The notes below the pieces were generated by a model. That model was not told the origin of the DNA, did not search any database, and saw only the letters and a program-made list of their open reading frames with translations. Positions 44,276 to 48,578 of a stretch of DNA of 48,578 nt are shown here, piece by piece. Source of the stretch: a bacterium (GTDB taxonomy: Bacteria > UBP6 > JAFGXH01); contig JAMOQH010000073.1 of the NCBI GenBank assembly GCA_027064085.1, positions 1 through 48,578 of the forward strand. The letters run 5' to 3'. The translations under genes were made by a program, and so were the position numbers. Numbering within the stretch: position 1 is the first letter of the stretch; every line of letters starts with the position of its first letter.

Positions 44276-44294
44276 GGGATTTAGGGTTTAGGTA

Positions 44295-44403
44295 CTTCAA
44301 ACCATATTCAGGGTGAATACGAGATTCGCCCCTACATATGGTTTTACGTTTGATAATTTAGCCAAAGTCTAAATTATTAGGTTTTGCCTGGGTCAAAACC
44401 TTG
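44295..44403 (+). repeat. Dispersed hairpin element, copy B1
   Basis: From 5': a GGGTGAAT / ATTCGCCC hairpin, the core CCCCTACATATGGTTTTACG, a hairpin ATAATTTAG (44353-44361) / CTAAATTAT (44369-44377) with loop CCAAAGT, then GGTTTTG / CAAAACC. It is a direct repeat of 45925-46034. It lies between the divergent valS and Fic genes. Confidence 0.8.
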
Positions 44404-44438
44404 GTTTTATCTTTTAATTTACTATAATTATAATAAGC

Positions 44439-44509: not shown

Positions 44510-45844
44510 ATGGCAAAAATAAAAATACCACCATTATTTAATGAATTAATGAATGAATATAATAAAAAGGGAGAATTACTTGATATATTAAGAGATATAA
44601 AGAATATAAAAGATGAACTAGAGTATCAAAATTGGGATAAAATATTCCATAAACATAGAAATAAAGAAGATGCTAAAAAAGAGTGGCTAAGTATTAAATT
44701 TTTAAGAAAACAACTTTTTAAAAAAATTAATTTACTAGAAGGGGAGTCTTTTAATCTAATAATTAACAATGTAATACAACAAAGATTACATCAAATAGAT
44801 AAAAAAGCTGGTGGAAATATTGGTATTATTGAAGATGGAATAATTGATAGGTCTAATCAACAAAGATACTTGATTCATTCTTTAATTTCAGAAGAGTCAA
44901 TTAGTTCTGCTCAACTTGAAGGTGCTGCTACTACTACAAAGGTGGCTAAAAAAATGCTAAATGAGGAAAGAGCTCCTAAGAATAAGTCTGAAAGAATGAT
45001 AATTAATAATTTTTTATTGATGAAAAAGGCTATTAGTAGCAAAAATAGAGAACTTAGCTCTGAATTAATTTTAGAATTTCATAAAATTGCAGTTGCTGAG
45101 GTTGCTGAAAGCAATGCTATTGCAGGAGAATTTAGAAATACAAATGATATAACAGTTGCAGAAATAAATACAGGAGATACATTATGGACACCTCCTTGTT
45201 TTAAAGAAATAGAAAAGCATATTAAGTTACTATCTAACTTTGCTAATGAAAATCATGAAGATGGAAATAATTTTATACATCCTGTTGTAAAAGGAATTAT
45301 ACTACATTTTATAATTGGATATGTTCACCCTTTTGGAGATGGTAATGGAAGGGTTGCAAGAGCTGTTTTTTATTGGTTTATGTTAAAGTCAGGGTATTGG
45401 TTATTTGAATATATATCTATAAGTAAATTATTGAAAGATGCTTCAACAAAATATACAAAATCATTTCAATATGTTGAAACTGATGAAAATGACCTCACAT
45501 ATTTTATTGATTACCATACTAAAATTATAGTAAACTCTATTGATTCTCTTACAAAGTATATTCGTAAAAAAGAAGAAGAGTTTGCTAAGTTTAATTTAAT
45601 GGTTGAAACATTAGTTGTTAAACATAAATTAGTTTTTAGACAAATAGAAATATTAAAGCTTATATATAAATCTCCAGGCAAAACATTTACGGTTAAAGAA
45701 ATAAAAAATAAGTTTTCTGTTGCTGAAAATACTGCAAGAAAAGATTTAAAACTTTTTGTAAAAATGGGAGTTTTAGTTGAAAGAAGAACTATCAAATCTA
45801 AATTTGATTATGTTGCTGTAGACATGAGAGATATATTGGAGTAG
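44510..45844 (+). CDS. Fic-domain AMPylator with C-terminal winged helix
   Basis: Fic enzymes transfer AMP from ATP to Ser/Thr/Tyr of target proteins. The active motif is complete: HPFGDGNGR (273-281). An N-terminal inhibitory helix is seen at 133-138 (SAQLEG, pattern S/T-xxx-E-G/N) with Glu137 as the blocking residue, so this is a self-inhibited class-II-like Fic. Residues about 375-440 form a winged helix (TVKEIKNKFSVAENTARKDLKLF), which suggests DNA binding and self-regulation. 444 aa; a strong AAGGAGG precedes the ATG. No separate antitoxin gene is needed or seen. It lies between two direct copies of the dispersed hairpin element. Confidence 0.92.
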   Translation: MAKIKIPPLFNELMNEYNKKGELLDILRDIKNIKDELEYQNWDKIFHKHRNKEDAKKEWLSIKFLRKQLFKKINLLEGESFNLIINNVIQQRLHQIDKKAGGNIGIIEDGIIDRSNQQRYLIHSLISEESISSAQLEGAATTTKVAKKMLNEERAPKNKSERMIINNFLLMKKAISSKNRELSSELILEFHKIAVAEVAESNAIAGEFRNTNDITVAEINTGDTLWTPPCFKEIEKHIKLLSNFANENHEDGNNFIHPVVKGIILHFIIGYVHPFGDGNGRVARAVFYWFMLKSGYWLFEYISISKLLKDASTKYTKSFQYVETDENDLTYFIDYHTKIIVNSIDSLTKYIRKKEEEFAKFNLMVETLVVKHKLVFRQIEILKLIYKSPGKTFTVKEIKNKFSVAENTARKDLKLFVKMGVLVERRTIKSKFDYVAVDMRDILE

Positions 45845-45924
45845 AAGCATGTAATAGGTTATTTTCCCCTAAAGAATGATAGTTTTATCTATAAATAGCG
45901 ATTCGTAATTTAAGGGGATGGGAG

Positions 45925-46034
45925 CTTCAACCCACATTCAGGGTAGGCACAAGACCGGCCCCTACATGTGGTTTTACGCTCAAAATTAAGCTTGAAATCT
46001 TAATTTTGAGGTTTTGCCTAGGGTCAAAACCTTG
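45925..46034 (+). repeat. Dispersed hairpin element, copy B2
   Basis: Same order and direction as 44295-44403: CATTCAGGGTAGGCACAAG, the core CCCCTACATGTGGTTTTACG, a ten-base hairpin CAAAATTAAG (45981-45990) / CTTAATTTTG (45999-46008), then GGTTTTG / CAAAACC. The hairpin sequence differs from B1 yet pairs perfectly. It lies in the 438-base gap 45845-46282, which also holds a gene relic (46039-46206) and the promoter at 46223-46252. The first 80 bases of that gap show nothing I can name. Confidence 0.8.
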
Positions 46035-46038
46035 ATTG

Positions 46039-46206
46039 TTATTTTCTACATTTATCATAATAATAAATATTTCTGATTGTAGATGATGAATAACTCCCTT
46101 TTGAATTACTTGATAATAATTTATCAAAAACTTTGTTTTTTACATCATAGTATTCTTTGAAATTTTTATTACCACTTTCATGAAAACAATTAGTTTTGTC
46201 TAGATT
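46039..46206 (-). pseudogene. Gene fragment without start, unknown
   Basis: A 55-codon frame ending in TAA at 46039, closed upstream by TGA (46207-46209). It reads NLDKTNCFHESGNKNFKEYY and then DVKNKVFDKLLSSNSKG and ends YYYDKCRK. Its composition looks like real protein (balanced, not repeat-like), but no ATG/GTG start with a ribosome site exists. It is probably the tail of a gene truncated by rearrangement beside the B2 element. Confidence 0.35.
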
Positions 46207-46282: not shown

Positions 46283-46933
46283 ATGATTGATGATCAGATA
46301 AATTCAAAAGAAAGGGTTAGGGATTTTGGAGAGGTTTTCACTCCATCTCATATTGTTTCTGATATGCTGGACTTGGTAAAGGAAGAAACTGAAAGAATAG
46401 AATCAAAATTTCTTGAACCTGCTTGTGGTAATGGTAATTTTTTAGTTGAAATATTAAGAAGAAAACTTGAAGTTGTAAAAAATAAATATAAAAAAATTCA
46501 GTTGGAATATGAAAAAAACTCAATTATTGCTATTTCAAGCATATATGGTGTTGATATTTTAGAAGATAATGTTAAAGAAGCTCAAAATAGGTTGTTTGAG
46601 ATATTTGAAGCTGAATATTTAAAACTTTATAAAAAAAATTATAAACAAGAATGTCTGGAGAGTTTTAAATTTATACTAGAAAAAAATATAATCCATGGTG
46701 ATACACTTACTCAAAAATTAATAAAGAATAGGGAACAACCTATTATTTTTTCTGAATGGGCGATGATAAGTGATGGAATGATTAAAAGAAAAGAATATTC
46801 TCTTGATTCCTTACTTAAAAAAACCAAAGTTAAATCATTATTTAATGATGAAGGTACTAAGGCTATAATACATAAAGCACAGAAAAATTATCCATTAAAA
46901 CATTTTTTAAAGTTGGTAGAATATGATCAATAA
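46283..46933 (+). CDS. N6-adenine methyltransferase-like subunit with SAM motif but no NPPY
   Basis: 216 aa. FGEVFTPSHIVSDML opens the protein like the N-terminal part of N6-adenine methylases. SAM-binding motif I is intact (EPACGNGNFLVEIL, 45-58), motif II is GVDILEDNV (89-97), and IHGDTL follows at about 136. Where NPPY would be expected there is IIFSEWAMISDG instead, and the protein ends without a target-recognition domain. It therefore cannot be a complete methylase alone. It overlaps the next gene by 11 bases, and that gene has NPPY but an altered motif I, so the two probably form one enzyme. AAGGA precedes the ATG. Confidence 0.8.
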   Translation: MIDDQINSKERVRDFGEVFTPSHIVSDMLDLVKEETERIESKFLEPACGNGNFLVEILRRKLEVVKNKYKKIQLEYEKNSIIAISSIYGVDILEDNVKEAQNRLFEIFEAEYLKLYKKNYKQECLESFKFILEKNIIHGDTLTQKLIKNREQPIIFSEWAMISDGMIKRKEYSLDSLLKKTKVKSLFNDEGTKAIIHKAQKNYPLKHFLKLVEYDQ

Positions 46934-48431
46934 ATTAAATTATAATCCAGATGTACTTGATGCTTTAGCAAATTTAAGTAATGATGAAGTTTTTACACCT
47001 CCAAAGCTAGTAAATGAAATACTTGATATTTTACCACAAGAATTATTTGAGAATAAAGAAACTACTTTTTTAGATCCAGTTAGTAAATCAGGAGTATTTT
47101 TAAGAGAAATAGTTAAAAGATTAATAAAGGGACTTGAAAATGAAATACCTGATTTACAAAAAAGATTAAATCATATATTTACAAAACAAATATTTGGTAT
47201 AGCAATAACAGAATTAACTTCATTACTTTCAAGAAGAAGTCTTTATGGTACTAAAATTGCAAATGGTAAGTATTCATTTTGTACAGAATTTAAAAATGAA
47301 AAAGGGAATATTCTTTTTAATAATATAGAACATACATGGAAAAAAGGGAAATGTGTATACTGTAAGGCAAGTCAAGAGGTATATGATAGGGATAAATCAC
47401 TTGAAAGTCATGCTTATCAATTTATACATACAGAAAACCCAAAGGAGATATTTAATATGAAATTTGATGTAATTATAGGGAATCCACCATATCAACTAAA
47501 TGTTGGAAAAGAAAAGAAAAATTATGCAATACCTCTTTATCAAAAATTTATTGAACAAGCAAAAAAACTCAATCCCAAATATTTAACAATGATTATTCCA
47601 GCTAGATGGTTTACTGGTGGTAGAGGACTAGAAGATTTTAGGGGTGAAATGCTTAATGATAAAAGATTAAAAGTTATTATAGATTATACTGATTCAAGAG
47701 ATTGTTTTCCTGGTGTAGATGTTTCAGGTGGAGTTATGTATTTTTTATGGAATAAAGATTATAATGGCCTTTGTAAATTTACCAATATTAATAGTGGTTC
47801 TAAAACCTCACTTAATAGAAAACTAAATAAATATCAAATATTCCCACGATATAATGATGCTCTTTTAATTATTGACAAGGTATTAGAAAAAAAAGAAAAG
47901 CTAATGAAAGATTTTGTTAGTCCTCAAACTCCATTTGGACTTTATACAAACTTTAAAGGGTTAAAGAATAAAACAGTAAACACCTATAAAGTATTTACGA
48001 GTAAAGGAATTTATTATATTGAAAGGGAAAAAATCACAAAAAATGTTAAATTAATTGATAAATATAAAGTTTCTTTCTCAAAAGCAACAACTGAACATGG
48101 TGGACAGGTTAATAAATCTGGTTTGAGACAGGTTTTATCAACAATAAAAATTTTAAAACCTAATGAAATCTGTACTCAAAGTTATTTATTAGCTGGAGTT
48201 TATAACAGTAAAATAGAAGCTGAAAATGTGGTCAAATACTTAAAAACAAGATTTCTTCGCTTTTTATTAGTTCAGGCAATTACTTCTCAAGATTTATCAA
48301 AAGAAAAATTTATGTTTGTTCCAATACAAGACTTCACTCAAGAATGGACAGATAAAAAACTTTATAAAAAATATGATTTAAATGAAAAAGAAATTAAATT
48401 TATTGAATCTATGATAGGAGCAATGGAGTGA
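46923..48431 (+). CDS. Eco57I/TaqI-like N6-adenine methyltransferase subunit with NPPY
   Basis: 502 aa. It begins DEVFTPPKLVNEIL. Motif I is altered to FLDPVSKSGVFLREI (49-63); ACG/GSG is the usual form. A possible zinc site (Cys120, His137, Cys144, Cys147) precedes the catalytic NPPY (187-190, IIGNPPYQLN). The C-terminal 300 residues look like a target-recognition domain. It is expected to methylate adenine in a specific DNA sequence, probably together with the 46283-46933 product. Only a weak ribosome site precedes the ATG, in line with translational coupling. The following gene starts two bases after its stop. Confidence 0.82.
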   Translation: MINKLNYNPDVLDALANLSNDEVFTPPKLVNEILDILPQELFENKETTFLDPVSKSGVFLREIVKRLIKGLENEIPDLQKRLNHIFTKQIFGIAITELTSLLSRRSLYGTKIANGKYSFCTEFKNEKGNILFNNIEHTWKKGKCVYCKASQEVYDRDKSLESHAYQFIHTENPKEIFNMKFDVIIGNPPYQLNVGKEKKNYAIPLYQKFIEQAKKLNPKYLTMIIPARWFTGGRGLEDFRGEMLNDKRLKVIIDYTDSRDCFPGVDVSGGVMYFLWNKDYNGLCKFTNINSGSKTSLNRKLNKYQIFPRYNDALLIIDKVLEKKEKLMKDFVSPQTPFGLYTNFKGLKNKTVNTYKVFTSKGIYYIEREKITKNVKLIDKYKVSFSKATTEHGGQVNKSGLRQVLSTIKILKPNEICTQSYLLAGVYNSKIEAENVVKYLKTRFLRFLLVQAITSQDLSKEKFMFVPIQDFTQEWTDKKLYKKYDLNEKEIKFIESMIGAME

Positions 48432-48432
48432 A

Positions 48433-48578
48433 ATGAATGAATTCTTTCCTGAAAAAATAGAAATATCACCTAAAATATATATTTATATAATCCCTGATGA
48501 AAAGAGTAGAAAAGGTTTATTAAAAATTGGTTTTACAACAAGATCTGTACAAAAAAGAATTGATGAACAACTTAAAAC
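48433..48578 (+). CDS. GIY-YIG/T5orf172-type nuclease, 5' end only
   Basis: The ATG at 48433 (GGAG four bases before, inside the end of the methylase gene) opens a frame that runs off the window after 48 codons. It reads MNEFFPEKIEISPKIYIYII, then PDEKSRKGLLKIGFTTRSVQ. The Y-x-Y and G-L-L-K-I-G-x-T-x-R pattern is that of GIY-YIG nucleases of the T5orf172/MUG113 type. Such domains often begin long proteins with a helicase in methylase-linked restriction loci, so this is probably the restriction subunit. The rest is not visible. Confidence 0.6.
   Translation, partial: MNEFFPEKIEISPKIYIYIIPDEKSRKGLLKIGFTTRSVQKRIDEQLK

What the first reader, a model, noticed from the sequence alone, without database searches (positions are those of the whole stretch)
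46283..48578. Complementary methyltransferase pair with a GIY-YIG partner
Directly seen: the first subunit has a perfect SAM motif I (EPACGNGNF) but no NPPY. The second has NPPY but motif I changed to DPVSKSG. The frames overlap by 11 bases and are followed at once by a GIY-YIG-type start. The simplest reading is a heterodimeric adenine methylase in which one chain binds SAM and the other does catalysis and DNA recognition, in a restriction system whose nuclease is GIY-YIG. This differs from textbook type I, IIG and III layouts.
Basis: partly seen in the sequence, partly recalled or inferred. Interest (0 to 1): 0.62.

Follow-up and report, generated by a model that had tools for sequence, protein, structure and literature searches.

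The report
Split adenine methylase of DrdVI-type restriction system
These genes encode a bacterial defence system whose DNA-marking enzyme is divided between two proteins, one holding the methyl donor and the other the DNA-reading and catalytic part; the system is of a kind already known (DrdVI), but why the second protein keeps a dead copy of the first is unexplained.

Summary
M1 (46283-46933) has an intact SAM motif I (EPACGNGNF) and no NPPY; M2 (46923-48431) has NPPY but a broken motif I (DPVSKSG). The frames overlap by 11 bases, and a GIY-YIG (T5orf172) gene starts one base after M2. The window ends there, but contig C60 of the same genome overlaps its last 127 bases exactly and carries the rest: an 834-aa GIY-YIG plus SF2-helicase protein.

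The operon is a DrdVI-type "split methylase" R-M system. M1-M2.DrdVI (GCAGCC) and M1-M2.MaeIV (GCACY) are published m6A methylases. So it is a new member of a known kind.

The complementarity is family-wide. In 49 M1s motif I is intact and NPPY absent. In 47 M2s Lys replaces the motif I glycine and the motif II acid is lost, while NPPY is invariant. Phage proteins L179 and L184 fuse an M1 lobe straight onto M2's NPPY half, dropping M2's broken lobe; they arose separately from split ancestors, and no R gene was found in their records.

M2 alone is predicted to fold like CamA with the dead lobe in the SAM-lobe position, so how M1 reaches NPPY is the open question.

The parts
46283..46933 (+). 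M1: SAM-lobe subunit, 216 aa
   Evidence: ORF; Pfam MmeI_Mtase and N6_Mtase above cut-off; 44% identical to M1 of the DrdVI plasmid
46415..46441 (+). M1 motif I, EPACGNGNF
   Evidence: P, both G and F invariant in 49 of 49 M1 proteins
46754..46759 (+). M1 Glu-Trp, conserved shortly before the point where motif IV would follow
   Evidence: E 45/49, W 48/49; no NPPY in any M1; the equivalent stretch precedes NPPY in single-chain L184
46923..48431 (+). M2: degenerate SAM lobe + NPPY lobe + target-recognition domain, 502 aa
   Evidence: ORF; Pfam Eco57I E 4.5e-39; 45% identical to M2 of the DrdVI plasmid; AF2 model pLDDT 86.5, pTM 0.83
46950..47456 (+). M2 pseudo-lobe (about residues 10-178), including an H...CxxC...H element
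   Evidence: homologous to M1; absent from L179, L184, L182 and L230
47073..47093 (+). M2 degenerate motif I, DPVSKSG
   Evidence: Lys 47/47 and the following Gly 47/47; the motif II acid is Ala/Gly/Ser in 47/47
47481..47492 (+). M2 catalytic motif IV, NPPY
   Evidence: 49/49
48433..48578 (+). R: start of GIY-YIG nuclease / SF2 translocase gene, cut by the contig end
   Evidence: T5orf172; continues on contig C60 (L238:1-2486), 127-base exact overlap, 834 aa in all, RFGKT, DEYH and SGTPF motifs

Best explanation
The three genes are a DrdVI-type (split-methylase, Type IIG-like) restriction-modification system. M1 supplies the SAM-binding lobe (motifs I-III). M2 supplies the NPPY catalytic lobe and the target-recognition domain. 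Together they form one m6A methylase active site that marks one strand of a short asymmetric site. R, a GIY-YIG nuclease fused to an SF2 translocase, uses the M1-M2 complex as its sequence reader and cuts unmodified DNA. Shown here: gene order, motif partition and its conservation, natural single-chain M1-M2 fusions, and R's domains and continuation on C60. Shown in papers for homologues: the M1+M2 pair methylates (GCAGCC; GCACY). Inferred: SAM on M1 and catalysis on M2, R cutting after translocation, and this system's own specificity, which is unknown.
For: The operon matches plasmid pDrdVI gene for gene. PMC6430315 assigns M1-2.DrdVI to GCAGCC m6A after cloning. PMC10113651 cloned M1-M2.MaeIV (GCACY) and names the DrdVI-like 'split methylase' family. 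[quoted passage not shown] The motif partition is invariant in 49 M1 and 47 M2 proteins. Of 84 full-length M2s, 78 have M1 directly upstream and 81 have R downstream. The same partition (CGEAPY-type M1, KSG/KQG in M2) recurs in a distant clade where M2 is fused to R. Single-chain L179 and L184 are an M1 lobe plus M2 C-half; the tree nests each with a different split relative, and L184 folds as a CamA/TaqI/DrdV-like methylase (pLDDT 91.7, pTM 0.89; Z about 18-24). The rest of R is in the same genome.
Against: No complex could be modelled. M2 alone is predicted with its pseudo-lobe in the usual SAM-lobe place next to NPPY, so M1 must displace it or dock some other way. One locus (L133) has M2 and R but no M1 within 5 kb upstream. 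L179 and L184 are known only as sequences; their activity is untested. C73 and C60 are joined only by a 127-base overlap in a metagenome-type assembly.
Confidence: 0.85

Rival explanations
1. M2 is a complete methylase that binds SAM in an unusual way at DPVSKSG; M1 is an accessory or structural subunit.
For: M2 alone is predicted to fold like full-length CamA (Z about 22) with the pseudo-lobe in the SAM-lobe position.
Against: Lys replaces the motif I glycine in 47/47 and the motif II acid is lost in 47/47 M2s, while M1 keeps both in 49/49. The phage fusions keep M1's lobe and drop M2's.
Confidence: 0.08
2. M1 and M2 are two separate methylases, one for each strand or site, as in many Type II systems.
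For: Systems with two methylase genes, one for each strand of an asymmetric site, exist (for example M1/M2.Csp12AI, PMC4752239).
Against: No M1 has a catalytic NPPY/DPPY and no M2 has a working motif I; neither is a whole enzyme. Published M1-2.DrdVI gives one m6A motif (PMC6430315).
Confidence: 0.03
3. A decaying or inactive R-M remnant in this genome.
For: The window cuts off R. Fragmented homologues exist: Btr188 (PMC4996451), and L103 and L137 here with M2 split between two open frames.
Against: All three frames are open and carry the invariant residues; R is complete, 834 aa, across C73/C60.
Confidence: 0.04

Closest known systems
DrdVI (M1.DrdVI, M2.DrdVI, DrdVI; Deinococcus wulumuqiensis 479, plasmid pDrdVI)
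   Same: Same three genes in the same order; M1 44%, M2 45% and R about 56% identical; same motif partition
   Different: Different host; the specificity of the window system is unknown
MaeIV (M1-M2.MaeIV, Methanococcus aeolicus)
   Same: Named in the same split-methylase family as DrdVI; the M1+M2 pair was cloned and gives m6A (PMC10113651)
   Different: Sequence not compared here; archaeal
Type ISP enzymes LlaGI and LlaBIII
   Same: Helicase plus single-strand m6A methylase (own knowledge); M2 model matches their MTase/TRD part (Z about 19)
   Different: Single polypeptide with an intact methylase and a different nuclease type (own knowledge)
MmeI and DrdV (Type IIL/IIG)
   Same: M1 matches the MmeI_Mtase Pfam family; models match DrdV and MmeI structures
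   Different: One chain, no translocase, different nuclease (own knowledge; MmeI family PD-ExK per PMC4752239)
OspHL35III-type Type IIG-like systems
   Same: Methylase, translocase and GIY-YIG nuclease (PMC4752239)
   Different: Methylase in one MmeI-like chain; translocase and nuclease are separate proteins
M.AquI and M.EcoHK31I
   Same: Natural two-chain DNA methylases (PMC3404938)
   Different: m5C enzymes, cut at other motifs; the cited text describes no degenerate extra lobe

Membership tests
DrdVI-type split-methylase R-M | Three genes M1-M2-R in tandem, homologous to those of pDrdVI | tested here: met
   R reached through the 127-base overlap of C73 with C60
DrdVI-type split-methylase R-M | Motif I in M1 only, NPPY in M2 only | tested here: met
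DrdVI-type split-methylase R-M | R is a GIY-YIG nuclease fused to an SF2 translocase | tested here: met
   T5orf172 and ResIII Pfam matches, RFGKT/DEYH/SGTPF
DrdVI-type split-methylase R-M | m6A on one strand of an asymmetric site, needing M1 and M2 | not testable with these tools
   known for DrdVI and MaeIV as cloned pairs (PMC6430315, PMC10113651)
Type IIG (classical) | Nuclease and methylase in one polypeptide | tested here: not met
   three separate genes; the literature still files DrdVI as IIG (PMC6430315)
Type ISP | Single polypeptide with nuclease, helicase, methylase and TRD | tested here: not met
   three genes
Type III | Mod with both a SAM motif and a catalytic motif, plus Res | tested here: not met
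   neither M1 nor M2 holds both motifs
Type I | HsdS specificity subunit | tested here: not met
   no S gene between or beside the three genes; M2 model carries a C-terminal recognition part matching CamA

The most novel reading that the evidence does not exclude
M2's dead SAM lobe, with its invariant Lys, is a placeholder that sits in the SAM position until M1 swaps in. That would make M1 binding a switch between a methylating state and a non-methylating state used by R for restriction. The lobe is absent in the four phage systems where an M1 and an M2 C-half occur and no R was found.
Probability: 0.2. Interest if true: 0.7.

Novelty: new member of a known kind. Interest (0 to 1): 0.4.

Why it matters
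The system itself is known, but in the papers found it appears as a line in a methylome table and a named family. The survey shows a deeply conserved split of one active site over two chains, with a conserved dead duplicate of the SAM lobe in the catalytic chain. Natural phage fusions supply ready-made minimal enzymes with which to test how the split works and what the dead lobe is for.

Tried and rejected
Looked for a natural chain holding M1 plus full M2, to model the complex: none found among 84 full-length M2 loci; only fusions lacking the pseudo-lobe. A single-protein scan of viral contigs found only two short matches; alignments were needed. Type I, III, ISP and classical IIG filings rejected (membership table). 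The careful tree did not finish; the quick tree was used.

Full report
Observation. Two ORFs lie at 46283-46933 (M1, 216 aa) and 46923-48431 (M2, 502 aa), overlapping by 11 bases, M2 in the +1 frame. M1 has EPACGNGNF and no NPPY. M2 has DPVSKSG where motif I should be, and NPPY. A third frame starts at 48433, one base after M2's stop, and its 48 residues match T5orf172, a GIY-YIG domain. M1 and the start of M2 are homologous (34% over 79 aa, E 4e-10).

Beyond the window. The window is the whole of contig C73 in its assembly. A search of the same genome for the DrdVI R protein found it at the very start of contig C60. The first 127 bases of C60 are identical to the last 127 of the window. Read across, R is 834 aa with T5orf172 and ResIII domains and the motifs RFGKT, DEYH and SGTPF. 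So a helicase does follow, in the nuclease's own gene. The join rests on this overlap alone.

Identity. Searches of plasmids found the same three genes in the same order on pDrdVI of Deinococcus wulumuqiensis 479. PMC6430315 reports M1-2.DrdVI cloned and expressed, m6A at GCAGCC, listed as type IIG. [quoted passage not shown] Hence the system is known in kind.

Spread and conservation. M2 matches occur in 31 of 395 genomes sampled from the phylum of a Saprospiraceae genome (Bacteroidota), 7 of 274 from the class of a Legionella genome, 5 of 398 from the phylum of an Oscillospiraceae genome, and in plasmids and many viral contigs. Of 84 full-length M2s, 78 have M1 directly upstream and 81 have R downstream. 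The three without R (L080, L100, L120) end near a contig edge. Of the six without an adjacent M1, four have M1 67-910 bases away, L134 begins at M2, and L133 shows no M1 within 5 kb. In 49 M1s the P, G, G and F of motif I and the motif II acid are invariant and NPPY is absent. In 47 M2s Lys stands for the motif I glycine, the motif II acid is always Ala, Gly or Ser, and NPPY is invariant in 49. In R, RFGKT, DEYH and SGTPF are invariant in 76.

A second clade. In a distant group M2 is fused to the C-terminus of R. There M1 has a CGEAPY-type motif I in most cases and lacks NPPY, and M2 again has KSG or KQG before NPPYQ. The split with a dead lobe is therefore probably old.

Natural fusions. Viral contigs L179 and L184 each encode one chain made of an M1 lobe (EPACGSGNF) joined directly to M2's NPPY half, without the dead lobe. 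L182 and L230 have M1 and the NPPY half as two overlapping genes, also without the dead lobe. In the tree of the NPPY half, L184 groups with split L142 and L179 with split L145 (SH-aLRT 90 and 88; the tree program counts two separate origins as forced by well supported branches). No R was found in the records of L179, L184, L182 or L230, whereas the records of L142, L145 and L115 have it; these records may be fragments. This is the best evidence that M1's lobe and M2's NPPY half form one active site, and it suggests that the dead lobe matters only alongside R.

Structure. AlphaFold2 gives M2 a confident fold (pLDDT 86.5, pTM 0.83) that matches CamA over 10-486 (Z 22.5, rmsd 4.8, 408 aligned), dead lobe included. 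L184 gives pLDDT 91.7, pTM 0.89 and matches CamA, LlaGI, DrdV and MmeI. Both lobes are thus predicted at the same position beside NPPY. How M1 reaches NPPY in the split enzyme (by displacing the dead lobe, or another way) was not resolved.

Mechanism. Most likely: M1 brings SAM, M2 reads the site and presents the flipped adenine to NPPY, and R reads unmodified sites through M1-M2, moves on DNA and cuts with its GIY-YIG domain. The methylation part is supported by published homologues; the SAM/catalysis division is inferred; the translocation and cutting steps are inferred from domains.

Verdict. Observation confirmed, interpretation supported, kind already described. The dead lobe is the part worth testing.

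Noticed in passing
window 44280-44415 and 45910-46045: Imperfect direct repeats (69 and 51 nt, about 71-78% identical) flank the Fic-domain gene 44510-45844; only short partial copies elsewhere in the genome.
   Followed up: partly
window 44510-45844: Fic/DOC-family protein with an intact HPFGDGNGR motif and a C-terminal helix-turn-helix match, just upstream of the R-M operon.
   Followed up: no
L093:3366-4388: An extra NPPY/TRD half without an SAM lobe lies about 1 kb upstream of a complete M1-M2-R operon and is the closest relative of that operon's M2 in the tree; it could be a spare specificity cassette.
   Followed up: no
L226, L231, L220, L224: Viral-contig proteins with the order reversed: NPPF first, then an M1-like lobe with DPACGNGNF or similar, a circular permutation of the same modules.
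   Followed up: no
L009:8795-9301 and L010:8779-9297: A second, shorter M1-like gene (EPSIGEGNF in L009) directly upstream of M1 in two Mollicutes-type genomes.
   Followed up: no
window 47331-47429 (M2 residues 137-169): Invariant H...CxxC...H pattern in M2 between the dead lobe and NPPY, a possible metal site; missing in the R-fused Enterococcus relative L019.
   Followed up: no
L031 (Tenacibaculum phage PTm1): Phage protein with only the NPPY/TRD half; no DrdVI-type R in the record, and PTm1 was not among the 40 phage records listed for M1, of 58 matched.
   Followed up: partly
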